DNA of 64,000 nt from Marchantia polymorpha subsp. ruderalis (taxonomy: Eukaryota > Streptophyta > Marchantiopsida > Marchantiales > Marchantiaceae): positions 6,778,001-6,842,000 of the forward strand of contig AP031357.1 in assembly GCA_037833965.1 (NCBI GenBank), in the 5' to 3' direction. The position numbers were made by a program, and so were the translations under genes. Positions 28,990 to 64,000 of this stretch are shown one piece after another. How positions within the stretch are numbered: the first letter of the stretch is position 1; each line of letters starts with the position of its first letter. The notes beneath the pieces are model-generated. The model did no database searches and had not been told where the DNA came from. It was given only the letters and a program-made list of their open reading frames with translations.

Positions 28990-30948
28990 CTACAACTGCA
29001 CGGACACGAGACGAGACCTGGTCGGGCACAGAGCTTCGACGCTGGCCGGCAGGTTGTCCAAGTAGACGAAGGCGGGAGGGCGAGGGGCGCTGGACCGCGA
29101 GGTCCAGAAAGAGGCCGAGAAGGAGGAGGTGGGCGAGAGCGAGCCCGAGCCCGAGGGCTCGGAGGCGCAGGAGGCGTCGTGCAGGTCGAAGGAGCGCTTC
29201 ATGAGCACGGCCTCGGGGCTGCAGTAGAGGATGCCTCCCTCGTCGGCGTAGTACTTCTTGCGGAACACCAGCAGCGCGAACAGCTCGTTGTCGACGGCGA
29301 CGCACGACGACACGTACTGCTCCTCGGACCAGCCGGGCGAGACCATTTTGTGCGACTGGATGCGCGTGCGCTTGTAGCCGAACGGCGCGTCGTCGTAGCG
29401 GAAGATGGCGTCCTTGGTCACGTCGCAGATGCACGCGGGCTGGCCGTCCTGGCCTGGCAGCAGCAGCAGGGCGCCCTGCGGGCACAGCTTGGCGAAATTC
29501 TCGACCTGGCGCCAGCGGTCGCAGGCCGGATTGTAGGCGTCCGTGAAGTCCGAGTCCTTCATGTCCTCGAGGTCCTCGTAGCGCGACCAGCCCTTGGGCC
29601 GCGCGTTGCCGCCGTACATGAACAGCTCGCCGCGGAAGTCGACCACGCTGTGGCCGATGCGCCCCAACGGCATCGACTCGACCGAGCTCCACTCGTTGCG
29701 CGCCGGGTCGAAGACCTCGCAGTTGGTCCAGATCTCGCGGTCGCGGTAGTACTCGTACTCATACTTGTCGGCGTGCGGCTCCAGGCCCCCGAAGACGAAC
29801 ACCTTGCCGTCGACGGCCGCGCACCCGAAGCGCTCGCGCACCACGCCCATGCTGGCGCAGCGGCGCCACGTGCTCTCGCAGGCGCCGAGGTCGAGCATGT
29901 GCACCTCGTCGCCCTTGTGCAGCACCTCGCCGCTCTTCTCCTTGAACAGGCCGCCCAGCACGTACAGGCGCCCGTCGACGAACACGGTCTCGAAGTGGCC
30001 CAGGCGCCAGGTCTTGGCCACGCCGTCGGCCGGGCTGGGCAGGAAATGCCAGGCGTTGCGCGCCGCGTCGTAGAGCGAGAGCGCGAGCTTTTTGAAGTCG
30101 TACGACTTCTGCAGCAGGCTCACGAGCGACGGATGGCTGAGCACGAAGAGCGCTTGCTGGGCGCCGCAGCGCGCTCGCGCGTCGTGCACTTGCCGGCTGC
30201 GGAAGGCGTGCTGCCAGCTGCGGTTGAGCGTCGAGAGGAGGTAGAGCTTGCACCAGGGCACGAGCGTGAGGATGCGATTGATGGTGATCTCGTCCGGCAG
30301 GCCTGGGAAGAGAGTGCTGGCGTCGGCTTCGGACTTGCAATTCGGATCCCTCGCAGCCGGTGCAATGCCGGACGAGGTTGCTGTGGCCGCCGACGCCGAC
30401 GCCTGCTGCTCTCGCTCGGCAGCAGCAGGATGCGAGTGCGGATGGTCGTCGGCGGCGGCGGCGGAGAGCGCCGAGTAGCGCGAGCTCGGTCTGCAGCTCG
30501 ACGAAGCTGAAATCCGAGAGGTTCTATGGCTGGATATGATACATGGACTGCGAGGGGGGCTTCGTAATCTCGTAGCGTCGGCATAAGCCCTCTCCACTCT
30601 CCTCACGACCTCCGATACGTCCTCGGTGATGGCTGAGTTGGACCGTTCCAATTGCAGCATCGCCTGCCTCTGCTCGGTCACCTTCTTCTCCAGCGACTGA
30701 ACGCGCTGGCGCAGCTGCTTCAGTTCCTCGATCACGTTTTCTCGCCTGGCGTTTTCTCGAAATCCTGATGATCTGCTCTCGTCCCCGGCCGTGGACGTGC
30801 TTCTCTTCTTGGGCCTGGCATCTCTCTCCGCCGGTCCTCTGCTTCCGAAGTCCGCTCCTTCCTCTGGCTTCCTGCTCCGACTTCGCGACGGCGCCTCCTT
30901 GGATGTCGAGTAGAAGTTCGAGTGTCCTCCAGATTTACTCCTTCTCAT
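28990..30948 (-). CDS. F-box/kelch-repeat protein, intronless
   Basis: Probable substrate receptor of an SCF (Skp1-Cullin-F-box) ubiquitin ligase; the substrate is unknown. The ATG at 30948 gives 652 aa. The frame stays open about 45 codons further upstream but without an ATG, so I use 30948. Order: Ser/Arg-rich basic N terminus; a coiled coil at about residues 70-123 (heptad-like VIEELKQLRQRVQSLEKKV); an Ala/Ser/His-rich linker; an F-box at about 213-255 (LFPGLPDEITINRIL ... SRSW-like end); then kelch blades to about 560 with GG motifs such as LYVLGG, VFVFGG and LFMYGG. The C-terminal ~90 residues are Ser-rich. The coding region is much more GC-rich than its surroundings. The N-terminal coiled coil suggests self-association (inference). 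Confidence 0.9.
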   Translation of the reverse strand: MRRSKSGGHSNFYSTSKEAPSRSRSRKPEEGADFGSRGPAERDARPKKRSTSTAGDESRSSGFRENARRENVIEELKQLRQRVQSLEKKVTEQRQAMLQLERSNSAITEDVSEVVRRVERAYADATRLRSPPRSPCIISSHRTSRISASSSCRPSSRYSALSAAAADDHPHSHPAAAEREQQASASAATATSSGIAPAARDPNCKSEADASTLFPGLPDEITINRILTLVPWCKLYLLSTLNRSWQHAFRSRQVHDARARCGAQQALFVLSHPSLVSLLQKSYDFKKLALSLYDAARNAWHFLPSPADGVAKTWRLGHFETVFVDGRLYVLGGLFKEKSGEVLHKGDEVHMLDLGACESTWRRCASMGVVRERFGCAAVDGKVFVFGGLEPHADKYEYEYYRDREIWTNCEVFDPARNEWSSVESMPLGRIGHSVVDFRGELFMYGGNARPKGWSRYEDLEDMKDSDFTDAYNPACDRWRQVENFAKLCPQGALLLLPGQDGQPACICDVTKDAIFRYDDAPFGYKRTRIQSHKMVSPGWSEEQYVSSCVAVDNELFALLVFRKKYYADEGGILYCSPEAVLMKRSFDLHDASCASEPSGSGSLSPTSSFSASFWTSRSSAPRPPAFVYLDNLPASVEALCPTRSRLVSVQL

Positions 30949-33900
30949 AGTCGCAGAATTGGATCCCCGGAGCCTCGATTGGCTGGCAGGCAGGCAGGCA
31001 GGCACGGGGAAGCACCGGAACTCCTCGCCTGCGGCAGCCGGACAGACCCCTTTTTGCTTCGAGCAGAGCAGAGCAGAGCGCAAAGGAAGCTCGGCAGCAC
31101 AAACCCTTGCAAGGATCCGCAGGCAAGATCCGCTGGTAGGATCGATCAGGTCGATGTCGGGCCGATTCTCACGCCCAGCTCACGGGCCAACTGAGGCGGC
31201 CGGGGCACTGGTATAGGGGGTGAGGAGACATGGACGACGATCAGATCCGGTGCGCTGGAGGCCGATGGGGGTGCATTCTGGTCCGGACGCATCGACCCTT
31301 CCCTTGCAGAAGAAAGAAGCTCGATCGGAGTGATCACGAAGTAAGTATGTAAGTATGTCGGACTATATGCCGGCAAATCGCAGGACTTACAGCATCATAA
31401 TACGTACGCAGTGAGGAGTGGAGCATGCGATGTCAGTCGGCCTCAACTGCTCTTAAATCAACGCTCGGAGAATCCATACGATACTCAGGGGGAAGTGGAA
31501 CTTGCCACTGGTCAATATCTTCTCCATCGGGGACGAATTCTCGCAGACCGATGATCGATCTGCAACCATTCACGTGAAGAACAGGCTTAGATGTGGATCG
31601 CCATTCTATTGGAGAGTATGATCGCTGCTGAGCACGCAGCAGCAGCCGGGAGCGGTGGATAGTCTAGGAGCGTCGACACTCAGATAGCATCGTCGCTCCG
31701 AGAAAACCAGCCTCACCTTTACGAGATGGACAGACATTGCCATCGAGATTCCCTGCAAGCGGAGCCGGACGACGCGAAAAGTCAACTATTCCCGTGTGGG
31801 TCACTGCACAGTCGCGGTTTGCGTTGCCCTGTTCTTCTCCAAGATTCTCGATCCAATTCCTCCCTCCGCGCAATCCTTCGCTTGATCAAACCCCCAAATC
31901 CCCGCCCGAAAAGACAAAACTGTGGCGCAGTTCGTATCACTTCTCTACAGTATATGAATCGTGACCCCCGTCGACAGGACTCTGATCGAAAGGTCGTAAA
32001 CCCTGCATTTGGGCGAGCGCAGCTCCAGAATGGACGCCGCTTGCCTCAAACTGACCATCCGCCGTGCACGAAGGTGGTTTCACTGCACGTTTATTTTGAG
32101 CCTTGCACCGTGCACAACAGTACGGATGGATGCTGTGGGATCGGAGCGAGAGACAGAGATAGAGGGAGATGCTGTGTACGTCAACAGCACGAAACAATCG
32201 GAATTTGAAAAGATGAGCCCAAATGAAATTTCGGCAGCAACTTATCACCATCGAATTTCGCAACCCTCTAAAATTGGGCCTTGTTCCTATGCTGCTCGAG
32301 TTGGATCAGGATACAGCGTCGTGGCGGACAGGTCAGGTCGGATCACGTTTCCCACTTATTGCAGATCAATGCAAGGAGGGAACCATCGGAGCCTCTCTCA
32401 TCGTGCCGGGCGTCGCGGGGGGAGCACCGATGATGAAGACATTCATATTCGAACACAGATTGCATCCGGCTGCATATATTCACCCTTCACAGACAGATCC
32501 CTCCTGGAGAATATGGAGCACGTTTCTCAATTTTCTAAACTTTTTTCCCCGATAAAGTCATTGACTCCTCCCGTCCATCACGATGCATTGTCCGAGTCTA
32601 GCTGCAGCGGTTGGAGACTATGAGGTCTTGGAGAACTAAACCTCGGTCTCCTCACTCTGCCTCTGCCTCTGGAATCGAGGACACAAAATATATCAATAAG
32701 CCTACGTATGTGAATAATGAAACAATTAGATAAATAAAGTCGAGGCTCGGATAAGTCCGTCTCCTTCTGCAGTGGAAATGTTTTCTGGAAGGAGCGTTTC
32801 ACAGTGAGAAAAGTAGCGACCAGTACCGTTCATCAGAATTATCAGGATGCATGCCAGTCTAGCTTTTTGAGGACACGGACATGCACAGAATATGCTCAAA
32901 AAACTGTCGTCATGACGCAGAAAATCTCCGCAATCCCATGTTTGTTATCACCGGAATGATCGATGTGCGTTTGAAGGACAACTAGTTCTTAACATGCTCA
33001 ATAGGTCTTGAAAGCATCAAGACTCCAGTTGGGAAGAAGTGATAAATCACAGTTCATGTTCAGCTCACTTTTCTTACATCAAGCCAGCAAATCATTTTAG
33101 CATAGTACACAAGCATTGAGTATATCAGTGCCAAGAAAATTTTGACATATTGATGATACTTATGCCTGTGATTCAGAAGCACAGATGCTTGTATCAGAAA
33201 AATACGGAATGAACCTAGCCTGATCGAAGGTTCGTCTTCAGCCCGAGTGGGACAGGAAGGACGTCTCCGTTATCTCCAAGTCTGGATCACTCTGTGACCC
33301 GACTTACAGATCGACCGAATGGGAATCGAGGATTCGTTCGTGACATCGACTTCGTTGTTCCTCCACGAACTGCTAGGTTGTTACAAGGAAAATGACAATG
33401 TTTTAGTACCCAGCTTGGACTCCACTAGGTTCACATGCCTGAAGTGAGGACTCTACCATGATGTGTCGAGGCTGAATCGATCTGAACGTACCGAGGTTTC
33501 TTGTATACCCCATTCTTGTCAAACAGTTTTCAAGAAACTCTTCACTGGTATGTACGGACATGGATGACCGAGTACAAACACGGATTCCTCCAGTTGGAAA
33601 CTGAATAGACAGGACTGTGATGCGCATTTCTATTGAACATAAGTTCCAGCAGGTATCAGACTCTGACACGGAGATTCTCACGATTGTCAGTAGCTCCCTT
33701 GCCAATTCAACCGACAGGTCTTTGCAGGATAATCTAGATCGAAATCTGGCACCTTCAACACACTCTCAACACATGGAACACTCTAGTTCACCGTGAACTC
33801 AGAAGGTTGGGCTTCAATAACAGATTTTGACATTTGTATACCAATTTTACGAAAGGTCGAACATGAAGAGGCCAGCGCAAATCACTTTCAAGTGGTGAAG

Positions 33901-49517: not shown

Positions 49518-49532
49518 AACCTCCCTCCTTTT
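49518..49532 (-). other. Polypurine tract of the chromovirus
   Basis: AAAAGGAGGGAGGTT on the minus strand directly abuts the 3' LTR. It overlaps the pol stop codon at 49531-49533. Confidence 0.85.
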
Positions 49533-52500
49533 AAGATGCAACGTCCTCGTTGCACATACGTTCAAACTCCTGAACTATCAAAGGTGCATTTGCTAAATTT
49601 TTAGCTGGTTCCCAAGTTGATTCATACGATGGATAGCCTTTCCATTGAATCAAATACTCTACTTTGGGATATTTATGACCTCGAATACGTTTCTTGAGTA
49701 TCTTTTCTACCTCAAACTCCTCATGATCTGCTATCAAGGTTGGAAGAGGAGGTGGTGCTGGTTGATTGGTGAATTGTTTTGGTCGTGGTACATGTTTTCG
49801 CAATCGTGACACATGAAATACTGGATGTATTTTCATATGTGACGGAAGTTCCAACTTGTATGACACTTCACCAACACGCTTCAAAACCAAAAATGGACCA
49901 ATGTACCTAGGGTTTAACTTTGGTGTTCCTACAAGAGACAAATTCGTTGTAGATAACCAAACATGATCTCCAACCTCAAAATTCACTTCTCTACGATGAG
50001 CATCGGCATGCTGCTTTTGCCGATTTTGAGCTATCACCAACTTCTCCTTGGCCTGATGTAGTCCTCGGTGAATATGCTCCATGAATTCGTTGACTGCTGC
50101 AACTTTGGTCGAAAACTCCTCTCCTTTCGGAAGTCTCATCAAACTTGAAGGAGTTATCGGATGAGCTCCATACATAAGAAAAAATGGAGACACTTTTGTG
50201 GATGCATTAACAGAATTGTTATATGCAAATTCCACAAGTGGCAAAAGGTTGTCCCACTCTTCTTGCTCTTCTAATGTGAATGCTCGTAGCATATCCTCTA
50301 TGGTTCTATTTGCCCTCTCAGTTTGTCCATCAGTTTGAGGGTGATAGGCCGTTGACATTGCTAGTTTTGTTTTGAAAAAACTAAACAAAGTTTTCCAAAA
50401 TAAACTAGTGAAGTGAGTACCTCTATCCGTGATTAACACTTTGCTTAAGCCATGATTCACAAAAACTGCGTCTAGATACAATTGAGCTAGTTGTGGAGCT
50501 GTTACTGTTTTTGTGGTTGGCCTGATGTGAATCATCTTGCTCAATTTGTCCACAAAAACCACCACTGAATCATGTCCTAACGAAGTCCTTGGTAACTCAC
50601 ATACAAGATCCATGGTGACATGTTCCCACCGCTGTTCGGGAATAGGAAGAGGTTGTAATAAACCCGCTGGTTTTTGATTACTTGCCTTGTTTTGTTGACA
50701 AGCAACACAACTTCGAACGTAAGACTCCACATCCTCACGTATTTTGGGCCAAAAGTACACTCGTTGTATACTCTCCACGGTTTTCTCCACTCCCACATGA
50801 CCTGCAATGGCTGTATCATGACTTTCTGCCAAAATCATTGTGCGCAAATCGTGATCTTGTGGAATCCATATACGCTGATTGTAAAACGCCAAACCTCGAG
50901 ATTTCTCTGCCTTTCCAGTTTGTAGTGCTCGAGTGATCTCTTCATCCTCCTTTGTGGCTTGTGACATCTTGCTCCACCAATCCGCCTGAATTTTCACTTC
51001 TGCAACATGATTCAAACAAGGCATGCGTGTGAGAGCATCTGCAAGTTGCTTCTTTCCCTCCACGTACACAATCTTCATGTTGAAGCGTTGACGCCACTCT
51101 GCCCATCGAATTTGTCGTTTGGACAGATCCTTCTGAGTTTCCAAATAAACCAAGGGTTTATGATCAGTCTCCACCACAAACTCCTTATCACCCAGATAAT
51201 GCTTCCAATGTTTGGTTGCCAACACGATAGCTAACTCCTCCCGTTCTGTCGTGTGATAATTTTGTTCCGCCGCCACCAACTTTCGAGAATAGAAAGCAAC
51301 TGGATGCCATCCATCCTCCCATTCTTGTTGAAGTATGCCACCTACTGTTGTACCTGATGCGTCAGTGGCCAACTTGATAGAACGGTTAGGATCATACCAC
51401 TTGAGAATAGGTGCGTGTAACAAAGCATCTTTCAATGCTTGAAAAGCTAACTCTTGAGCTGTTCCCCATCTCCACTTCTGACCTTTCCCTAACATGGAAG
51501 TCAAGGCCTGAGCTAGTCGAGCAAAACCTTTCACAAATCTACGATAGAATCCAGTGAGCCCTAGAAAACTCTTCAATTGAGTTTGATCCTCAGGTGCTAT
51601 CCATTTCTGAATGGCCTCTATCTTCTCACTCATCACTTGGATTCCTGTAGCTGTAACTCTATGACCCAAGTAATCTACTTCTGACTTGCCAAATTCACAT
51701 TTTGAAGCTTTGGCATACAATTGATTGTCTCTTAAAACTTGAAGTACCTCTCGTAAATGACTTCTATGATCACTCAAAGTTTTGCTATACACCAATATAT
51801 CATCTAGAAAAACAATGACAGATTTATCTAGATAAGGGCGAAAGATATCGTTCATCAATCCCATGAATGTAGCTGGTGCATTAGTGAGACCAAAAGGCAT
51901 CACCAGATACTCAAAGTGTCCATACCTAGTACGAAAAGCTGTCTTGTGAACATCTTCATCTGCAATTCGAATTTGATTGTAGCCGCTTCTCAAATCTAGC
52001 TTGGTGAAGTACTTCGCTCCTTGAAGTTGATCAAACAAATCATCCATACGAGGTAATGGATATTTGTTTTTCACCGTTTGCTGATTCAACCCGCGATAAT
52101 CGATACATAGTCTCATGGATCCATCCTTCTTCTTCACAAAGAGTACTGGAGCTCCATAAGGTGAAACACTTGGCTGAATGAATCCCTTGCTCAACATCTC
52201 CTCCACTTGAGCTTTGCATTCTTCCAATTCGTTTGGAGCCAAACGATATGGAGCTTTGCAAGTTGGTGTACTTCCAGGTATCACCTCAATCTTGTGATCA
52301 ACTCGCCTCTTTGGTGGTAATCCTGCAGGTAGATCATCTGGAAAAACATCTTTATACTCCATAAAAATGTCGTTCAAGGACTCCGGGATGTAAGGTTTGT
52401 CCGTGGACCCAATATCTCTTATAAGTCCAAGGAAACATACATCATCTCTAGAAATGGATGCTGTACCCATCACAAAGAGGGGTAAATTCCTATTCTGAGA

Positions 52501-52959
52501 TCTAATTCTATCTCCATAGATCTTCCATCCGCTACTTGTAATCACTTTTCTTCTCCAATCTACCTTCGGATTATATTGTTCCATCCATGGCATTCCAAGG
52601 ATGACATCATACCGAGCTAAACGAATTACTCTCCATTCAATGCTCTCCTTGTATCTACCTATGGATAATTCTACACTCCGTGGTAGTGTTTCTATCACTT
52701 CAGTTTGCCCGTTTGGCAATTCAACTTCTTCACTCACGTCCTTCATCAACATCAAACCTAACTTCATAGCAACACTCCTTGATAGAAAATTCTCAGTTGC
52801 TCCAGGATCAATTAAAACTCTCACCTTGTGTCCTTCCATGAAACCATCAGTGACAATGAGTTGAGCTTGCTTCTTACTCCTTCCATGAGCTCCCAACCAT
52901 TGCTTTCTTCCAACCTCGCCTTTTCTTCGCTTTGTAGAACCAGTAAGGCCGCGAGGCAA
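49531..52959 (-). CDS. pol: Chromovirus Pol: protease, RT, RNase H, integrase, chromodomain
   Basis: About 1142 aa in the -1 frame relative to gag. There is no ATG at its beginning, and the frame is open from 53004, so it is made as a Gag-Pol fusion. Domains: retropepsin with [10 protein letters not shown] (D51); RT with VFLDDIL (about 384-387); RNase H with ATDASG (D533); integrase zinc-binding H714, H721, C751, C754; integrase core D784, D845, E881; C-terminal chromodomain about 1082-1132 with aromatic cage candidates FEVE, QWKGY and STWEP. Chromodomains on integrases tether integration to marked histones (known for chromoviruses). All catalytic residues I can place are intact. Confidence 0.95.
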
Positions 52960-52983
52960 GATTACTGGTGATCTTCGTTTCCC
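52939..52983 (-). promoter_or_regulatory. Programmed -1 ribosomal frameshift signal (gag to pol)
   Basis: Minus strand: slippery heptamer GGGAAAC (52983-52977), correctly phased as G GGA AAC in the gag frame. A 7-nt spacer GAAGATC follows, then an 8-bp perfect hairpin whose arms are ACCAGTAA (52969-52962) and TTACTGGT (52946-52939) with a 15-nt loop. The gag stop codon is in the first arm. The pol frame is open only from 53004, so the overlap is about 42 nt and contains the heptamer. This fits the X XXY YYZ rule, and slippage here gives the observed pol frame. Confidence 0.85.
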
Positions 52984-54125
52984 GAAACTGCTTCCTCCAC
53001 CTCTTCATACTCTATCCCCTCCATATTGTTGAACGGTCGTCGCTGCATGGGCCGTCCTCCTTGTTGTGTCGGCCGAACTCGACAAAACTTGGCTATGTGA
53101 CCCATTCGTCCACATGCATAGCATTGGCGATTGTCACGAACTCCAGCTCCTCCTCGAACCATTCCATTATTTGCATAACCTTCTTGCAAATTTGGAACTC
53201 CTGGTCGCCTAATCTCACCTCCAAATCTTGGTGGTGGTCCTCTTGTTGGTGCAAAACCTTCTCTACGTCGAAGGTTTCCCAACTTCATCGGTGTTGGACC
53301 AGATGGATCTCTAAAATTGCTCACTGGCTCACCGTGTGTGACACCAAAAGCACCTGAAATTCGTTGAGCAATTGCGATTGCTTCATTCACAGTAGATGGA
53401 TTGCTTACCATCACCTCCTTTCGAATTCGATCTTTCAAGCCTCGTTTGAACACGTCCAAGGCTTCAGCTCCACTCATATCCATGATAGATACTTGAAGAT
53501 CACGAAATTCTTCAATGTACTCATGAATACCTCCTTTCTGCTTCAGATCCCACAACTTCATTCTTGCAGTTTGAAGAGAATCCACCGCTTGAAAATTTTG
53601 CAGAAGTCCTTCCTGCATTCCACTCCACGAAATGGTAGCACCTCGTTCTGAAAGCATTCTCTCCCATGTTGTGTACCATGTGAGAGCCTTATCCGTAAGA
53701 TAAGATCTCATGAACATTCCTGCAATATAATCAGAAACATGAAAATGGGATAAATGAATATTCATCCTCATAATCCATCCCTCTAACACTCCCATTGCTC
53801 TACTCCCTTTGTAAGCTTCCACCTTACAGGATTTTCCCATTCGAAGCAAAAGATTTGCTTGATCTTCAATCTCTTGAAGACGTCTCCTATTTGCCTCTGC
53901 TGCATCAATAGGAGTTGGTTCTGGCTGAACTTGGGAAGCTTGAACTTGAGGTTCAACTTCCATCTCTCCAACTCTCTCTCTATCTACTTTCTCACTCTCT
54001 AATGCAAAGATTTTATCTTCCATGGCTTGCTGCTTGGTATGCCCATCTACTATCGCTTTTCTCAACTCCTTCATCTCCGCCATGATTGCATTGAGAACCT
54101 CACCCATATCAATTGATGTTCCCAT
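52962..54125 (-). CDS. gag: Chromovirus Gag
   Basis: 387 aa from the ATG at 54125. The structural protein forms the virus-like particle. An N-terminal coiled-coil-like region (about 10-55) is followed by a capsid/retrotrans-gag region (about 100-260, with [19 protein letters not shown]). One CCHC zinc knuckle, [14 protein letters not shown], lies at about 335-348. The frame ends in TAA inside the frameshift hairpin. Unbroken. Confidence 0.93.
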
Positions 54126-54142
54126 GCTTTTTCACACTCCCT

Positions 54143-55159: not shown

Positions 55160-55164
55160 GTGCG
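55160..55164. repeat. Target-site duplication (GTGCG), right copy
   Basis: Matches 49093-49097 exactly. It marks where the chromovirus entered the outer element, about 85 bp past the latter's integrase-PHD stop codon. Confidence 0.93.
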
Positions 55165-55249
55165 CGAACCAGTAGGCCGGGTGCTATGTCGCCCCATCGT
55201 TAGTCGCCTATCTGCAATTCATAACATGTGAAGATCAAGTCATCTACCC

Positions 55250-57016
55250 CTATGAAGTACATCGAGGACAAACCCATCGTCCAGCCGGAATAACATCGAT
55301 AGGCGGAGTTAGGCACGACATGTGCCATCCCCTAGAGCACCTATCACACACCAACATACGGGCCGCCTGACCAGCCGACCCACACAACATGCACCTCAAG
55401 CTAGCACGTACTATCGCTAAGCTTGGTACCATAGTGCCATCTACGTTTGGGAGGTGGCATGGCGCACAATTGCGCACATGATCCTTCCAAACAACGCCGT
55501 CACGACCCTCCAACAGGAGAACTCCAAAAGGTAACACCTCCCGCACCCGCAAGATGATGCGTCCCGCCGTCACATCCAATGTCGTCGATGCAGTCTGCTG
55601 TAGATAGACGTAGTCTCCCACATGGAATCTACGAATTGATGGTCGATAACCTCCTCCCCGAATGGTTGCATACCGCAACGTATCTCTATGTTGAGCAATC
55701 GCAAGATTCTCAAACGCTGCAGGCATAACTCTTCGAAAGAGCTCTGCACGTTGAGAACATACTCTCACCCACATATTCGGGTCATCAAGGTTCACCACCT
55801 CGCTAGACTCACGACGAATCGATGTTGGCAAGTCTGGATCTCGGCCGTACAATAGAAAATATGGTGAGAAGGAAGCCAAGGATGCCTGCCGACTGAACCG
55901 ATATCCCATGGCCAACCACGGTAACTGGATATCCCAGTCCCCAAGATGACCTTTCTGCAGGCCATACTTGCGCAACGCCCTCTTCACCGTCTGTACAACA
56001 CGTTCAGCTAAACCATCCGCCTCTGGATGATCTCGCGACGTGGTCCGATGATCAATCAGTGCCTTGTCGCACAAGACCTGAAACTTCGTTCCCTGATCGG
56101 TTAACACCTCAGCTGGTGCACCATAGTGACTAAGCACTCTGTCAAGAAAAGCATACGCTACTCCCTCACTTGCCCTGTCAGGTAATGCCACCAACTCAAT
56201 CCACTTGGAGAAATGCTCCACCATCACCAACACATACCGATGATGTCGTACAGTCAAAGGTAGTGGTCCAGCAAAGTGTAAACTCCAACGGTAACCCAAC
56301 CCCATGATGGGTAATGGATGTAACACTGGTGTCGGGGCATTGAATGATGCCCTCACTCGATCACAAACCATGCAACGTGATACCAACTGTTGTACCTGAG
56401 TATGCATACCACGCCACCAATACTGACCAAGGAGTAAGCTGTATGTACGCTTCACTCCAAAATGTCCCAACTCCTCATGAGCATGCCTCACAATGCGTGC
56501 TCTCTGGGCTGGATGTAGTACTACTCGTACCCTACCGTCCTCCCATACTCGAAGAACATGTGATCCCTCCAATCGGTACCTCTTGGCCCGTTGGAGAACA
56601 CGATCTCGCTCCTTGGCACCCACTGTGCCTGGCACCATGCTGGTCCGTAGGAACTCCAACACCAATGCATCATCGTGTACATCACGCTGATCCACACCAC
56701 CATCCTCAACCTCAGGATTTGGAGATCGACCATCTACTCTCTGACTAGAGTAAGATGTCAGATGATCCTCTCTGCTGGAGTTCCCACGTAACCAACACAT
56801 GAAGGCAGATGCATGCCAACCAGGCACCATCTCCTCGTCAACCTCACCATGCCATCTAGCTCCAGTGTCATCCTCCTGGCTAGTGCAGGGGTTTCGACTC
56901 AAACCATCGGCATCTAGGTTCGCAACTCTAGGTCTATGCACCACCTGAAAGTCGTACTCCTGTAAGATGAGAGCCCACCGTGCAAGCTTCCCTGTAAGCT
57001 TGTCGGACTCCATCAA
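55250..57016 (-). pseudogene. Outer element: end of RNase H, integrase and C-terminal PHD finger
   Basis: 588 codons open, continuing the RT/RNase H frame after a TAG. It begins with RNase H/connection sequence (LTGKLARWALILQEYDF). The integrase zinc-binding motif is H180, H185, C215, C218. In the core, the expected first catalytic Asp in the (D)FAGPL motif is His (H247, codon at 56276-56278); D307 and E338 are kept. The last 47 residues form a PHD finger with C542, C545, C557, C560, H565, C568, C583, C586 and GRWVCPRC at the end. PHD fingers bind histone H3 tails, so this probably played the targeting role that chromodomains play in chromoviruses (inference). Lack of the catalytic Asp makes this copy integration-defective. 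Confidence 0.85.
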
Positions 57017-57052
57017 CCACTTGAGCGGTTGATGATCAGTAACAAGGGTGAA

Positions 57053-58360
57053 CTACGTACCAAACAAGTAACACCTGAAGTGCGCCACAGCCCACACCGC
57101 TGCCAAGCACTCTCCCTCGTACGAACTATATCGCGACTCCGCTGCATTGTTCGAACGACTAGCGTACGCAACCACAAACTCCTTGCCCTCATCATCACGC
57201 TGCGTCAACACCGCTCCAAGTCCCAACATACTCCAATCAGTGTGCAATTGGTATGGACGACCTCTGATAGGTCTCCTCAAGATGGGAGCGGCCACCAACC
57301 TGGCCTTGAGCTCAACAAAAGCCCTCTCCTGCTCATCTCCCCATTGCCACTCCTGATCTGACTTCAGCAACTGGTTCAAAGGCTTGGCTATAGCACTGAA
57401 CCCCTTCACATACCTCCTGTAGTAGTTCGCTAAACCCATAAATGCACGAACTCTACTCACATCCGTGGGACGAGGGATGCGTGCAATAGCCTCCACCTTT
57501 GCTTGCTGAACTCCTAAACCACCTGGGTATATCACATGACCCAAGTACTCAACCTTCTCCTGGAAGAACTTACACTTCCCAGGATGTAACCTCAAACCAT
57601 GAGCCCTCAATCGCTCAAACACAATCTGCAAGTGTATCTGGTGTTGCTCCACAGTGTCACTAAACATCAAGATATCATCAATGTAACATCTGACAAAATC
57701 CAGCCCCGCCAGGATTCTGTCCATAACCCTGTGAAACTCGGTAGGTGCATTCTTCAACCCAAAGGGTAAGAATTGCCACTGATACAAACAATCCTTGCCG
57801 TGGGAGTTGACGCCCCAAAACGTTGTCTTGATTTTGTCCTCCTCCCGAATTGGCAACTGATGGTATCCTGCTCGAAGATCCAAAGTACTAAAAATCCTCG
57901 CATGTCCCACCACATCGAAGATCTCCTCAGGTGTAGGCATGGCATACTTATCGGACTTCGTCTGCCGATTGATAGGACGGTAGTCTCCACACATGCGCCT
58001 ATCCGTGTAGTTGCCATGTACATCCTTCTTCACCGGCATGACAGTGGCTGACGCATACTCACCATGCGATAACTCCACTAGTCCAGCCTCCAGTAGGTCC
58101 AACGTCCTACTCCGAATCAAATCTCTCTCCATCTCACTGTATCGATAAGGACGACGGAAGATTGGCGTATCACTAGCCAATTCTATCCGTATACCGGGTC
58201 CAATCAACGCACCCAACTCCTTCATACTGAAAGCAAAACAACTCCTATAGTCTCGTAGGAATTGTGTCAATCGTCGCCTCTCTCCTCCTGTGATCTGGGA
58301 ACCAATCAATGGCTCCCATTCCTCCTCCATAGGCACACTAGAGGGAGGCGACACTGTCAA
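57053..58360 (-). pseudogene. Outer element: reverse transcriptase and first part of RNase H
   Basis: 435 codons, in frame with the methyltransferase segment. RT motifs: MPVKKD, MCGDYRPINRQT, STLDLRAGYHQ, FLPFGLKNAP and the catalytic YIDDIL (226-229), then EYLGHVI and FMGLANYYRRYVKGF. RNase H begins with HTDWSMLGLGAVLTQ (D375) and is cut by TAG at 57053-57055, inside the conserved LFG...F.LVTDH stretch. RT looks intact; RNase H would need readthrough. Confidence 0.88.
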
Positions 58361-58366
58361 TGGTTG

Positions 58367-59425
58367 CTACGCTACACACTGCAAAGAAGGGTTCTCTGTA
58401 CCCTCCTTCGTAGCCACCTCCACGTGAGAATCCTCTCCAACTGCATGGGCTGCAACTCTGGCAAGTCCTTTCGTCACGTCCCATAAACTCCAAGGATAAC
58501 GAATATCTCGCCTGTCGCCCCCAGCCATTGCTACTACCGTCCCGGTAGGTAATGAGCTAATAAGTGGTGTTACAACCACCAAATCTGCGCGCAAACGGCG
58601 TTGCTCGGCCAAACCCAAGCTCACAATCCACGTCAAGCAGTTCAGGTCCATAGCCTGATCCAAAACCTGACGACACGACGCCTCTGAAACTGAAGAAGCC
58701 GCGGTCACACCAGTAAGAAACCCCATCGCACGCTCTCTCTCATCAGCGTTGGGCTCCACCAACTGATGTAGGGTACTGTCCCATAGTAGTCCAGGTCCCC
58801 CATCACGATATGCATGGGATGCCGGATAATTGACAAATGTAGGTAAAGCCATCCGAGGCTGACCTACGCGGTTCATCAATGCCATAGGTGACCTGTTAGC
58901 AACTCTCACTACTTGAGAGTGCCGGGAAACATCCAAGATACTGTCAACGGTGAGTGTAGTATCACGCTTCATCGAATCATAGGCATGACGCAATATCTCA
59001 CGTGGCAAAAGGTTGTTCCACCACAAACGTGCACGATGCGCTCGTGATCCAACCCTCGCAGCATCCAACAGTACTGCTGATCCAATCCATGCTCGGACTT
59101 GATGGACACTCGCCATCAACTGGGCCCGAGTGTCACCCAACAATGGTACGTTCTCCAGAATGTATGCTGGAGAACATGTCTGCTGCACTTGGAGATGACG
59201 TAACACTCGCATCATCTCCCAAAACATCTGAGATCTGGGATCATGCAACCCTGTCCCATGTCCAGCGCGTGTGTGTCCCTGACATGGCCAGCCCGCAATC
59301 ACCATATCAATATGGCCAACGCGGTCAAGGTCTGGCGCCCCCAGCAACGAAATGTTTGAAGGCAACGCCTTCTGGAATCCTCGGACAGCTGATCGCGGCA
59401 ACAACGAAGGAAAACGCCGCATCAA
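58367..59425 (-). pseudogene. Outer element: cytosine-5 DNA methyltransferase, motifs IV to X
   Basis: 352 codons. Motif IV is VIAGWPCQGH, with the catalytic Cys at residue 48. Motif VI is YILENVPLLGD (Glu 91). Motif VIII is SRAHRARLWWNNLLP (130-140), closely like the SxxHRARxFWxNLP of the DNMT3/DRM branch. The motif IX-X end has PNADERERAMGF and the DQAMDLNCLTW stretch. It is in one frame with motif I upstream and RT downstream. It transfers methyl from S-adenosylmethionine to DNA cytosine in known families. About 80 residues after the catalytic domain link to RT and have no known fold. A TAG at its end (58367-58369) separates it from RT in this copy. Confidence 0.88.
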
Positions 59426-59893
59426 CTATGCAACATGTCGTGAAGAGACTCGACGTGCAGTCTCGTCCTTCTCCACATACAAGTATCTCCGTACGGGAAT
59501 ACCTGACTGCAACACCGCAGCCAAACCGGTGCTGTACCCACCAAAAAGATCCAGCAAACAAACGCCCTCTGAGGAATACTCCCATGCAATAGGTGTAGTA
59601 ACCAATGAAGACAATGCGCTAGAACCACCAACTAGCCGATCAGCTGAAGCCCTCTCTGGCTCTGCTGGTAAAGAGGCTTCACTCCAAGCCTTTTTTACCA
59701 ACCTATCAGCTTCCAACTGCAGTGCCTGGCACGAACTCCACAGTGGAACATCTAAGGGTGAAGTCACCGCCGCTGTGAAACTCACAACCTCCTCCACATC
59801 CTCGTAGACTGAGGTATCGTCGGCAGACATGTTCCCCTCCAACAAGTCATCGGGCCAGGTAAGCATTCCGCTAAAACTTGCTACAGATGCCAA
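59426..59893 (-). pseudogene. Outer element: methyltransferase N-terminal part with motif I
   Basis: 155 codons. The last 45 carry the S-adenosylmethionine-binding motif I region VCLLDLFGGYSTGLAAVL, followed by RRYLYVEKDE (motif II acid). A TAG at 59426-59428 then breaks the domain before motif IV; reading continues in the same frame in the next segment. The first ~110 residues are an acidic/Ser-rich linker after the protease. Motif I has Ser where the third Gly of FxGxG-type motifs often stands; DNMT3-type enzymes have Ala there, so activity might tolerate it. Confidence 0.85.
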
Positions 59894-59899
59894 GACCGC

Positions 59900-60373
59900 T
59901 TACAAAGATCCAAGAGGTCGATCCCGAGAAATAAATCTCACTGGCAGCTCGCTAAAACGTCCATCTCCGGACTGCCAACCAGGACGATATGCGGCAGTCT
60001 CCGTCCAATAGTTCATTCGGAAGCCCATCGGGTATAACACCACTCCACCAACAAGCACATCATATGACTCTGCTGATGTAACCACAGCACGAACTCCAAA
60101 CTGCGAGCTATCATGAGGGTGATCATGCCTCAACTGCACCGCTATGCTCTCCCTAGTCATAAAGTAAGACCTATTGCTGGCACCACCAAGGGATGTCTGG
60201 ATCTGGAATGGGCAAGGTTCCAACTCTGACCTCCGAATGCCCAAACTAATGCATGCAGCCTTGCCCAACATCAAGGGTTGTGCACCAGAATCCAACAAAA
60301 CTCTGGCTGGGACATACACCTGTCCAGTAGAACTCACTAACCGAAATAGACCACTTCGTTGTCCACCATACAT
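59900..60373 (-). pseudogene. Outer element: aspartic protease (retropepsin)
   Basis: 157 codons. VLLDSGAQPLML has the D-S-G active site (D28), and a later YDVLVGGVVLYPMGF stretch matches the ILG-like flap/C-terminal part of clan AA proteases. It lies in the -1 frame relative to gag and overlaps its end by about 40 nt. A TAA at 59900-59902 separates it from the methyltransferase segment in the same frame. I see no canonical slippery heptamer in this overlap. Confidence 0.8.
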
Positions 60374-61668
60374 ACATCAGGGACAATACTCTCGCGATCA
60401 ATGGCTGGGCGAGCTGGTAAGGACTCCATCCTCGCCGCTGCGGCCTGCCAAGTCGTCTCCTTGAACAATGTAGACGTTGAGGATGGGTCCTCAACTGTAT
60501 CCTCACTTATCTCGGCACTAGTAGCAGCGACTCTCCCACGCTCACACGACGTGGCTGCCACCCGAAATACTCGAGCCAAATCAATACCAGAGTCTATCAA
60601 CTCCGTGGCTGAGAACAATGGAGATCGCAAGACTGAAGTGGCCATCCGCATCACTGCACTAGATGGCAAGTCTGCGCCCACAACAGATGATGTAAGAACC
60701 TCAGTTCTCACTCTAGTGTCAGTAGGCGGTGCAGGTCTCATAGATGAACTGCTACCCACCTCTGACAACAAAAAGGACTGGGGAAGTCTAGACTGACGTC
60801 CACCCTCACCCCTCTCAGGGTCCAACTCCACAGTCGCACCACGTGGCTCTGAAGTGCGAGCACCACCTCTGGTCACTGCAACTGATGCCTCAACCTGTGC
60901 TGCACTGGCCAAATAGGAGAAATCCTCTCCCTCGTAAGATGTGGAAGTGCTCGCCCCCAGACCGGCCATAGCAGCAAGCCTCTGCTCCAACTGCTCAATC
61001 CGAGCAGCCATAGCGCTCTCTGTGGCAGAAGTAGCACTCGCTGCGGTACGCTCAATGGCCCCGGTACCTCTACCACCTCTGCCACCTCGACCACCTCGGC
61101 CTCGCGGAGCATCACCTCCACGACCTCTACCTCCAGATCTCAACTCAGGATGAAGGTCAAAGCAATGCTCTCGAGGGTGACCCGGTCGATGACAATGATC
61201 ACAGGTCACCTGTGCCGGCTGTGGCCTAGCCTGTGGAGTTTGTCCCTCTCGCTCCTGGGGACAATCCTTCCTCATATGGCTACCTCCGCATGTCCAACAT
61301 GACGGTCCCTGTGGCTGACCCGAAAATGAAGGCAGTGGTGGCCGCGCACTAGGCTCTCTGTGACCTGAAGGATGTCGTGTATGACCTCCACGACTCTCAC
61401 TTATGGGGCGAGACTGTGCTAGGCTATGTGGGATACGCGAGGTAGTGGTCGTGTCCCTCGCAAATGTAGACGTCACCACCCTCTCCTCCACCATGTTAAG
61501 CTCAATCTTCTTAGAAAGAGCAAACACATGGGCTAATGTGGGTGATGAGTCGCTCATGAGAGTAGCATCACGCACTCTCCTCCGCAACTCTCTGTCAAGG
61601 ATCCGATACCAGTACTGGACAGCCTGTGCCTCAGTCACACCGTGAGTAACTGAGATGAGCCGTCGCAT
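60337..61668 (-). pseudogene. Outer element: Gag C-terminal half with two zinc knuckles
   Basis: 443 codons from the first Met, with the frame open further up to about 61780. It contains capsid-end sequence (QYWYRILDRELRRRVRDA), then CWTCGGSHMRKDC and CDHCHRPGHPREHC zinc knuckles, then an RG-rich tract (GRGGRGGRGGRG). It lies in the -1 frame relative to the N-terminal gag segment. The sequence just before this Met in this frame (GESLREAYTRMRRL) reads like normal gag, so the two halves were probably once joined. Confidence 0.8.
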
Positions 61669-62366
61669 ACGAGTGTATGCCTCACGAAGACTCTCACCAG
61701 TCTTCCGCTCAACTCTTGGAGGCTCCTCAACTTCTCCGTTTTCACCCCTTGATAATTCTTCCTCAATCTCTGGAAGAACTCAGGAATGGGGCTAAACGAA
61801 GGTACGCCACCAGCATCTCCCCTCGTGCTGCCACCGGCAATGCTAACAGTACCGCTGCTGGTACTAGTACCAGTTGTGCCAACTGCTCCACTGGTACTCT
61901 CGCTGATGCTACTACTCGCACCTCCACTGATGCCGATACTCGCAGCTCCACTGGTACCCACACCACCCTGGGTAATGGATGAGTAGTTCGGAGACCAATG
62001 CCGTCTCCATGCATCAATCTCTACAGCATACTCTCTCCCAAACTCATGATAATCGTCCATGGGATGCCCCTCCAAATGCTGGAATAATCCCTTCCATGCA
62101 AAGAAGGGTGTAAACAACGTGGGGTTACGCAGAAACTGCATATCACACCACGTGTCGAACTCCTGAATAAAATCATCAAGCTCGATGGTGCCCACTGCAC
62201 CAGAATAACGTCGAGGGCCCTTCGCGGCCCCGTACATCCCGTCCATGTCCCAAATCAATGGGGTGGGGACACTAGACGATATCACCAACAAAGACTCTCT
62301 GTCTGCAACACTCTGGTCCTGCTCCGCAACAACTGGCGAAATAGGTGAAGGTAGCCGATACCTCAA
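61635..62366 (-). pseudogene. Outer element: Gag N-terminal half
   Basis: 243 codons open. No ATG at the nominal beginning; the first Met is in WDMDGMYG. Capsid-like sequence (FIQEFDTWCDMQFL, FFAWKGLFQHLEGHPM) is followed by a Gly/Ser/Thr/Val-rich stretch. Near 61760-61790 the capsid sequence passes into the -1 frame (next segment), most simply a frameshift mutation. Confidence 0.7.
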
Positions 62367-62500
62367 CCCACTCCGCGTAAATCCCCCGCGGTCCTCAACA
62401 GGACCACTAGACTGCTCCGTGATGGCGAGACTTCAACTGGCACCACTGCCAGATCTCCACCCAATAACCCAATCCGCCTCTGATGTCGTGCTGCACTGAG

Positions 62501-63127
62501 CTACTCTAGCCCTACTAGCTAAGGTGTATGGGCAACCTAACCTGTCACCACAGCAAGAAGACTCTCACGGTCTACTGGTCATCACTCCAGTCTCACCGTG
62601 AGAGAAACATAGATAGACCGGCCGGTGATCAAGTCCAGCCCCCTATCGCCACCACACAGGAGTAAAACTACTCCGGAAATCAGCGTCACCCCTACACGGG
62701 CGCGCACCAGGAAGCAAGACTGGAGAGGATCCAAACACAAGCAACCAGCTAGCAACGACTCTCCAGTCTAAAGGAAACACAGCACAAAACAAGACAACAC
62801 ACACGGGACATCGCATCGCTTCGCGATCCCGATTTGATCTCCATCGCCCTCCATTTACGTGGGCCTCCAGTGCCTATGATGCCCTCTTCCACCAAATTGC
62901 AAACAAAAATTGTTTGAAAACTTCTTTTTTTTCTTTTTTTTTTTCTCCTTCACACAGGGGTCACACTGCCCCTCAACAAACACACTACACACTGAAAGCT
63001 TAATATATTGACTACGTCATATATATATTTACAATGCTTTCAAAACATCACGTCACAGGTAGTGAAACCGGGTGCAAACTCCCGATCCCTTCAGGAACTC
63101 CTATCTAAACGCTACAAGTATTTGCTA
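62501..63127. other. Region upstream of the outer element's gag
   Basis: Probably the 5' leader of the outer element, with a poly-T/C tract near 62922-62950. From about 63000 it becomes AT-rich. I looked for a second copy of the candidate LTR and for a Met-tRNA primer site and saw neither. Confidence 0.4.
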
Positions 63128-63487
63128 TCAATCCTTTGGAAGACTATCAAGAAATTTTTCTAGTACAAGAATTTTTTCTGAAAGACAATCTTGAATATAC
63201 TGAACATCTCTCAAATGGTCAGCAATATCCTGTGGAAGGTCTAGTAACTCATCCTCATATACCCTATACTCTAGGCCGGATTCCTCTAGAAGTTTCTCTA
63301 CGGCTAGTGCCTCGTCCCAATCTAACCCGGAATCTTTTTCTTCTGCCACAACAGTGTTTACCGGATTCTCTTCTATTTGAGGCTGCACCGTCACCTCTTG
63401 CTCCTGATCACGTTCCTCGCTACTGACGACTTCCACTGTCTGGATTTCTTGTATATCACTGTCATCCGCTTTTTCTCCAAGCGGCAT
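63128..63487 (-). CDS. Hypothetical acidic protein
   Basis: 119 codons from an ATG at 63487, in a purine-rich context. The product is strongly acidic (many Glu/Asp). Its C-terminal half could form helices (WDEALAVEKLLEESG; LSEKILVLEKFLDSLPKD). No family recognised. It could be a small gene, an exon of a gene running out of the window, or part of an undefined transposon next to the outer Gypsy element. Confidence 0.35.
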   Translation of the reverse strand: MPLGEKADDSDIQEIQTVEVVSSEERDQEQEVTVQPQIEENPVNTVVAEEKDSGLDWDEALAVEKLLEESGLEYRVYEDELLDLPQDIADHLRDVQYIQDCLSEKILVLEKFLDSLPKD

Positions 63488-64000
63488 TTTCCCTTTATAG
63501 TTAACACTTCACTGTGTACAAGGATATTTGTTTTTACATAGAATCTGTAAACTAAATCTGAAGGGAAAACTGAAAATTGTTTAACTATAAAACTATTAAA
63601 AGGTTTTAATAGCTTTAAAGAACTTGGCATAAACAAATTCACTTGAACTAGTGAATTTGAAATTTTCTACAGCAAACTTAGCACTGCTGTATTTTATCAC
63701 AAATCTGATTGTAATCAAAAGACCTGCATAGGCCAACTTCACCTAGCAGATCTCCAAAAAACAGAGGCTACAGCTATTGGACTATTTCAGTATGGTATTA
63801 TGCCAACTAAGTCACACATAATCCTCTTTGGCTCAAGTATAGCACACTATGTAATTAAGTTCGTGTGGATATAGGTGGCTGAACATCCAAGTAGATATTC
63901 GAAAGCAATGTCACTAAACATTCTTTTACCATGAAATGTTTTAGGAAAGGGAGAGAGTTATGGCAACCAACTTCAAGCTAACCAGGGTAAGTTACCTCCA
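63488..64000. other. AT-rich DNA at the window edge, nothing recognised
   Basis: No coding frame of note, no LTR and no RNA gene seen. Confidence 0.4.

What the first reader, a model, noticed from the sequence alone, without database searches (positions are those of the whole stretch)
58367..59893. A DNA cytosine methyltransferase embedded in the pol polyprotein of a Ty3/Gypsy retrotransposon
Motifs I, IV (PCQ), VI (ENV), VIII (HRAR) and the C-terminal target-recognition/closing region lie in order between a retropepsin and an RT. All are in one frame, apart from single stop codons. The motif VIII region points to the DNMT3/DRM de novo branch. I recall reports of methyltransferase capture by retrotransposons in dinoflagellates and charophyte algae; this copy has a specific layout (protease-MTase-RT-RNaseH-IN-PHD). 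The element may have methylated its own cDNA or the host around it, to pass as host chromatin or limit damage; that role is inference.
Basis: partly seen in the sequence, partly recalled or inferred. Interest (0 to 1): 0.93.

Follow-up and report, generated by a model that had tools for sequence, protein, structure and literature searches.

The report
Liverwort retrotransposon carrying a DNA methyltransferase
A jumping element present in many copies in a liverwort genome carries its own DNA-methylating enzyme, in one reading frame with its capsid protein and parted from its copying enzymes by a leaky-looking stop signal; the kind was known from an alga, but this form and its abundance in a land plant look new.

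Summary

The kind is known: KnitGypsy-Dnmt3 of Klebsormidium (PMC5890265).

Readthrough and methylation of its own cDNA are inference.

The parts
55160..64000 (-). part of the element inside the window; homology to intact copies stops at 55160 (3' end with B1-A2-B2 missing); the 5' repeat A1 lies about 2.6-2.9 kb beyond the window end
63609..64000 (-). start of the variable 5' segment (continues beyond the window)
63131..63508 (-). small acidic ORF (126 aa), also in two other copies (C32, C33), not found in C31; no Pfam family
61638..62432 (-). gag, first piece (frame differs from the next piece)
   Evidence: weak Retrotrans_gag in intact copy, E 0.011
60340..61779 (-). gag, second piece, with two zinc knuckles, and linker
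59903..60376 (-). aspartic protease (LLDSGAQ)
   Evidence: weak
59900..59902 (-). private stop (decay)
59429..59899 (-). MTase N-terminal part, motif I (LLDLFGG)
59426..59428 (-). private stop (decay)
58370..59425 (-). MTase, motifs IV (PCQ, catalytic Cys codon 59282-59284), VI (ENV), VIII and C-terminal part
58367..58369 (-). conserved TAG between ORF1 and ORF2
58361..58366 (-). CAACCA (CARYYA readthrough context)
   Evidence: motif from PMC2754532 and PMC4132726
57056..58366 (-). RT and most of RNase H
57053..57055 (-). private stop (decay)
55253..57052 (-). end of RNase H, integrase (first Asp lost here), PHD finger (55259-55393)

Best explanation
A dead copy of a high-copy, recently active Ty3/Gypsy-type retrotransposon of a Marchantia-like liverwort. 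Shown: intact copies have ORF1 = gag-protease-DNMT3-type MTase (1361-1365 aa), one conserved UAG, and ORF2 = RT-RNaseH-DDE integrase-PHD (1042-1045 aa) in the same frame; ends TGTC...GACA, 4-bp target duplications, split direct repeats A1...B1-GC-A2-B2; the MTase is a selected part of a TE lineage distinct from the host's own DNMT3. Inferred: the UAG-CAACCA is read through at a low rate, so the MTase is made at gag-like dose and packaged, with RT/integrase as the minor extension; the MTase then methylates the element's own cDNA or fresh insertion, so that it enters the genome already marked like host heterochromatin; the PHD finger steers integration to a histone mark.
For: Domains and order. 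Open ORF1/ORF2 with one stop in 4 of 4 long copies; 25 of 115 scored copies have ORF1 frames of 1351-1365 aa without a stop (counted). TAG-CAACCA in 30 of 30 loci; 98 TAG, 1 TAA, 1 CAG among the 100 listed of 177 genome sites. CARYYA context in plants (passages). DNMT3 identity. Selection: omega 0.212 for MTase, 0.243 gag, 0.076 RT-RNaseH. Target duplications in 7 of 7. Recent copies. Footprint of CG and CHG methylation on copies. Precedent with active relatives in yeast for the dinoflagellate elements.
Against: No readthrough product or activity was measured. An AUG lies 36 nt after the UAG, so reinitiation is possible. The RNA structure after the stop is outstanding in L031 (lowest z of 100 windows) but only 13th of 100 in L034. 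The Klebsormidium domain was inactive in yeast, judged inconclusive by its authors. The Klebsormidium relative P0209 and P0155 run from MTase into RT without a stop, so the leaky stop is not needed for the kind. The methylation footprint does not tell host from element enzyme.
Confidence: 0.6

Rival explanations
1. The UAG is a true terminator and ORF2 is made by reinitiation at the AUG 36 nt downstream or from another message. The MTase would still be part of the gag polyprotein.
For: An AUG follows 12 codons after the stop in L031 and L034; relatives P0163, P0165 and P0166 are predicted to start with Met nearby, though ORF callers choose such starts.
Against: The 12 codons before the AUG are open in 30 of 30 loci and of equal length in L034; exact CARYYA context.
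Confidence: 0.3
2. The MTase acts not on cDNA but on RNA or as a brake that lets the host silence the element and tolerate it; methylation of copies is the work of host MET/CMT/DRM.
For: C/T differences are as frequent at CHG (1.61%) as at CG (1.56%) sites against 0.70% at CHH, a plant-silencing pattern; the Klebsormidium domain showed no activity in yeast; such roles are discussed in PMC5890265.
Against: Motifs IV, VI and VIII nearly invariant in 31 relatives, DNMT3 fold, selection; all fit DNA methylation, none proves it.
Confidence: 0.3
3. Gypsy elements captured DNMT3 several times (Klebsormidium, bryophytes, volvocine algae) rather than once.
For: Two layouts exist: PR-MTase-RT, and RT-MTase-IN in P0158, P0160, P0161, P0218, P0220 and P0231; PMC5890265 speaks of acquisition in the K. 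nitens lineage; deep nodes of both trees are weakly supported.
Against: All MTase-labelled RTs fall in one clade, support 0.99; the 28 TE MTases tested lie on one side of a split (UFBoot 99) from host DNMT3, two DRMs and human DNMT3A. Only four cellular sequences were in that tree.
Confidence: 0.25
4. One reading: one gag-pol frame in which the stop after the MTase is ordinary decay.
For: The window copy does have three decay stops; P0155 and P0209 have no stop there.
Against: TAG at the same codon in 4 of 4 long copies, 30 of 30 loci and 98 of 100 listed sites.
Confidence: 0.02

Closest known systems
KnitGypsy-Dnmt3 of Klebsormidium nitens (PMC5890265; abstract, three sections and passages read)
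   Same: DNMT3-type MTase in a Gypsy polyprotein between protease and RT (P0209: PR-like at 62, MTase 231-608, RT 758-952, IN 1308-1435); intronless; purifying selection; DIRS-like repeat structure with Gypsy domains (Fig. 4 legend).
   Different: Here MTase and RT are parted by a conserved UAG-CARYYA; a PHD finger follows the integrase (the paper's text does not hold the term PHD; P0209 is a partial protein); many more copies; land-plant host; MTases 42% identical over 140 columns.
SymbioDIRS-Dnmt3 of dinoflagellates (PMC5890265)
   Same: A retrotransposon-borne DNMT3; active as CG de novo MTase in yeast; split or DIRS-type repeats.
   Different: DIRS backbone, unrelated acquisition by the authors' account; here DDE integrase and 4-bp duplications.
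Plant DNMT3 with DUF3444 (PMC6453930, section 6 read), here the host gene L064
   Same: DNMT3 branch, linear motif order.
   Different: Host gene has introns and DUF3444; 31% identity to the element's MTase over 154 columns.
Type I leaky stop of tobamoviruses (passages of PMC2754532 and PMC4132726)
   Same: UAG followed by CARYYA between an upstream product and its polymerase extension.
   Different: In a retrotransposon; readthrough not measured.
Host-gene capture by plant LTR elements (passages of PMC13317346)
   Same: Host transcript pieces joined into an element, probably by template switching.
   Different: Here one family carries different cargo from copy to copy at one place, just after repeat A1.

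Membership tests
DNMT3-bearing Ty3/Gypsy elements (broad kind) | DNMT3-type MTase encoded between protease and RT | tested here: met
   protease itself weak by Pfam
DNMT3-bearing Ty3/Gypsy elements (broad kind) | Gypsy order RT-RNaseH-DDE integrase | tested here: met
   DDE residues present in L031 and L034, first Asp lost in the window copy
DNMT3-bearing Ty3/Gypsy elements (broad kind) | intronless, multicopy, MTase under purifying selection | tested here: met
   (omega 0.212)
KnitGypsy-Dnmt3 in the narrow sense | MTase in one uninterrupted ORF with RT | tested here: not met
   conserved TAG between them; P0209 of K. nitens has no stop there
KnitGypsy-Dnmt3 in the narrow sense | DIRS-like repeat structure | tested here: met
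   A1...B1-GC-A2-B2
DNMT3 methyltransferases | DNMT3-like sequence and fold, motifs I-X in linear order | tested here: met
   PCQ instead of the PCN of DNMT3A
DNMT3 methyltransferases | de novo cytosine methylation of DNA | not testable with these tools
   needs an enzyme assay
DRM methyltransferases | rearranged motif order (VI-X before I-V) | tested here: not met
   motif I to VIII in linear order; host DRMs L065 and L070 are rearranged
DIRS elements | tyrosine recombinase and no target-site duplication (recalled) | tested here: not met
   DDE integrase and 4-bp duplications in 7 of 7 copies
Type I stop-codon readthrough | UAG followed by CARYYA | tested here: met
   30 of 30 loci
Type I stop-codon readthrough | measured readthrough product | not testable with these tools
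   needs a reporter test or mass spectrometry

The most novel reading that the evidence does not exclude
One DNMT3 capture founded a green-lineage clade of Gypsy elements that has kept its own methyltransferase from algae to land plants. In the liverwort form a TMV-like leaky UAG sets the methyltransferase at capsid-protein dose, so that each particle carries many MTase molecules that premethylate the cDNA before a DDE integrase, acting on a circle-type B-GC-A junction (palindrome GACAGCTGTC), inserts it; the same particles copy spliced host mRNAs into the element's 5' segment.
Probability: 0.25. Interest if true: 0.85.

Novelty: new variant of a known kind. Interest (0 to 1): 0.62.

Why it matters
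Hosts silence transposons by cytosine methylation, yet this transposon lineage keeps its own DNMT3-type enzyme. The Gypsy case rested, in the papers seen, on one alga whose domain was inactive in yeast. A high-copy, recently active family in a Marchantia-like liverwort makes the question why a transposon would methylate directly testable in a model plant. The conserved leaky-stop context predicts the enzyme's dose (capsid-like, not RT-like), which separates cDNA methylation in particles from rare action in the nucleus.

Tried and rejected
Stop 58367 as decay: rejected. Host gene fallen into an element: rejected. DRM branch: rejected. Ordinary LTRs: no long direct repeat in the window copy, which lost its 3' end; intact copies show split repeats. 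DNA of relatives outside this genome: one viral-contig scan gave a single locus, 33% identical over about 109 residues, of no use; so the UAG context could not be checked in other species, and ORF ends of relatives are protein predictions only. The 277-bp gap in the C31 cargo has no splice signals and is not counted as an intron. RNA structure after the stop: strong in L031, unremarkable in L034. In the second-look fold list DRM chains are not among the 50 rows; by the tool's note that excludes nothing. Literature: no report of DNMT-bearing Gypsy elements in bryophytes appeared in the listings (open-licence library; few of the papers opened). PMC12344493 (passages) mentions DNMT3s within retrotransposons of streptophytes, citing the 2018 paper; its supplementary figures were not seen and might include bryophyte copies.

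Full report
WHAT WAS CHECKED. The best named relative of the element's ORF1 is Marchantia polymorpha subsp. ruderalis Mp_8g17980 (95% over the MTase part), and Mp_8g17980 ends at the same residues as ORF1 here. So the host is most likely Marchantia or close to it; that is inference. The element lies on the minus strand.

THE OBSERVATION. Pfam finds DNA_methylase in 58370-59425 (E 2.2e-10), RT and RNase H in 57056-58366, integrase and PHD in 55253-57052, and a weak protease in 59903-60376. The ORFs from 60376 down to 55250 abut each other in one frame.

INTACT COPIES CHANGE THE READING. The MTase query gives 115 scored places out of 668 candidates, a lower bound; by my count of the table, 25 of 115 have open frames of 1351-1365 aa around the MTase with no stop inside. 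Four long copies (L031, L032, L033, L034) were read: in 4 of 4, ORF1 of 1361-1365 aa ends right after the MTase, then comes one stop, then ORF2 of 1042-1045 aa in the same frame. The stop is TAG followed by CAACCA in 30 of 30 loci; these 30 are the best scoring of the 115, so biased to good copies, and include the window copy. A pattern that leaves the stop codon free and fixes its flanks (up to 2 mismatches) has 177 sites; of the 100 listed, all with exact flanks, 98 are TAG, 1 TAA and 1 CAG. The L034 subfamily has other upstream flanks, so 177 undercounts. UAG-CARYYA is the context reported as essential for TMV readthrough in plants (passages of PMC2754532 and PMC4132726; the first also mentions readthrough candidates among rice Gypsy elements). 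Twelve codons separate the UAG from the next AUG; they are open in 30 of 30 loci and equally long in L034. The RNA after the stop folds unusually well in L031 (z -3.89, 0 of 200 shuffles as good; lowest of 100 windows), but in L034 the same window is 13th of 100. Readthrough is the best reading; reinitiation at the AUG is the main rival.

THE WINDOW COPY IS DEAD. It has private stops at 59900, 59426 and 57053, gag in broken frames, His in place of the first integrase Asp, and no homology to intact copies beyond 55160 on the 3' side.

SELECTION AND AGE. Between L031 and L034 omega is 0.243 for gag, 0.238 linker and protease, 0.212 MTase, 0.076 RT-RNaseH, 0.102 IN-PHD. Within the 30 loci the pooled pN/pS is 0.216 for protease (24 open copies), 0.359 for MTase (17) and 0.290 for RT (26). 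So the MTase is held about as strongly as gag and less than RT. Three copies are 99.87-99.9% identical over 2970 nt. A1 and A2 of one copy are 100% identical in L056, L058 and C31, 99.7% in L053, 98.0% in L057, and 93.8% with a 17-nt gap in C34. The family was active recently. Among pairs of 29 loci at most 6% apart, C/T differences stand at 1.56% of CG, 1.61% of CHG and 0.70% of CHH sites: the footprint expected of CG and CHG methylation, as in plant silencing. It does not say which enzyme did it, pairs are not independent, and coding constraint was not removed.

ENDS. Intact copies carry A1 (about 293 bp) - internal - B1 (about 119 bp) - GC - A2 - B2. In the 7 copies where both ends were read, the element starts TGTCATG, ends GCACGACA and is flanked by an exact 4-bp duplication in 7 of 7: AAGA, TCTT, ATCT, AGTG, GATG, ATGT, TGTG (the ends were located with typed end strings). 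L056 has an extra B-A unit. The K. nitens element was also described as having DIRS-like repeats with Gypsy domains (PMC5890265, Fig. 4 legend). The inner B1-GC-A2 junction is the palindrome GACAGCTGTC; cutting after each CA would give the recessed CA ends that integrases use. That last step is inference.

SPREAD. MTase relatives (163 proteins, 120 listed; 42) include Marchantia polymorpha, M. paleacea, Riccia sorocarpa, Calypogeia fissa, Sphagnum species and many unnamed metagenome proteins. The ORF2 search (267 hits, best 120 listed) adds Klebsormidium nitens P0209 (order PR-MTase-RT-IN) and Tetrabaena P0218 (order RT-MTase-IN). In an RT tree of 104 sequences all MTase-labelled proteins, 19, fall in one clade (support 0.99). 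Two proteins inside it with a long upstream part show no MTase (P0208, P0222); outside it 0 of 15 with a long upstream part have one; the rest are too short to score. The MTase label was given at any length, the no-MTase label only with a long upstream part; under one length rule for both, 11 of 13 inside the clade have it. Many distant ORF1 proteins end 87-156 residues after the last MTase motif without RT, while P0155 and P0209 run on into RT. The M. polymorpha models P0129 and P0134 also join MTase and RT, and Sphagnum P0137 skips the junction; I take these for gene models that splice over the stop, untested. So the split ORF1/ORF2 form is probably not confined to Marchantia, but its codon context elsewhere is unknown.

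CARGO. After A1 plus ACTCGAAGAAC, copies that are mostly 97-99% identical elsewhere carry unrelated sequence; of the copies compared, L054, L055 and C33 share one segment, and C31's segment recurs at three other places. Seven segments were searched in the genome. In C33 the segment is a mosaic: six consecutive exons of a gene at C8:424060-426298 with a Sec63 domain (E 6e-35), and two-exon pieces of two other loci; 7 of 7 junctions fall at GT-AG introns, counting both strands. In L053 five exons of a locus at C7:8670463-8672109 are joined, 3 of 4 junctions clean GT-AG. CW, the window copy, has one possible GC-AG junction at about 91% identity; C31's gap is not an intron; for C34, L057 and L058 splicing was not shown. 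Host-transcript capture by LTR elements is known in plants (passages of PMC13317346).

HOW IT MOST LIKELY WORKS. Shown: parts, order, ends, conservation, selection, recent copies. Inferred: low-rate readthrough makes gag-protease-MTase the main product; the protease frees the MTase in the particle; the MTase acts on cDNA or on the new insertion; the PHD finger guides integration; template switching between packaged RNAs loads host mRNA pieces. In print, SymbioDIRS MTases methylate CG de novo in yeast; the K. nitens domain did not, which its authors call inconclusive.

VERDICT. A new variant of a known kind: confirmed, better understood than at first reading, and more abundant and widespread than the searched literature says; its function is still open.

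Noticed in passing
L041:60-2990 (C33), L053:1170-3410, and the 5' segments of other copies: The segment between repeat A1 and the conserved leader differs between copies and in C33 and L053 consists of spliced host mRNA pieces (10 of 11 junctions in these two at GT-AG introns): a mobile trap for host transcripts.
   Followed up: partly
window 49531-54131 (-): A second Ty3/Gypsy element beside it, a chromodomain type: ORF of 389 aa with gag and zinc knuckle and ORF of 1157 aa with protease, RT, RNase H, integrase and chromodomain, the two overlapping in different frames.
   Followed up: no
L064 (G000:C6:12459429): A host DNMT3-DUF3444 gene, although PMC5784723 (passages) lists only MET, CMT and DRM enzymes for M. 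polymorpha.
   Followed up: partly
P0158, P0160, P0161, P0218, P0220, P0231: Relatives in which the MTase sits between RNase H and integrase instead of before RT; Tetrabaena is one. In P0158, by eye only, a second methyltransferase-like stretch follows the PHD finger.
   Followed up: partly
L032 with L036 and L040 (G000:C2:20744376-20758575): Copies of the family stand head to tail (2208 bp at 99.96% at an offset of 8316) and inverted (2759 bp at 99.86%) next to each other.
   Followed up: no
window 63131-63508 (-): A small acidic ORF upstream of gag, kept in three copies (CW, C32, C33) and not found in C31; no Pfam family. It may be an old captured piece.
   Followed up: no
P0164: A relative of ORF2 (68%, 1083 aa) comes from an assembled transcriptome in EukProt, so such an element is transcribed in some eukaryote; species not shown.
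   Followed up: no
window 28990-31179 (-) and 7568-10200 (-): By eye only: a kelch/F-box-like gene and exons of an ion-channel-like gene.
   Followed up: no
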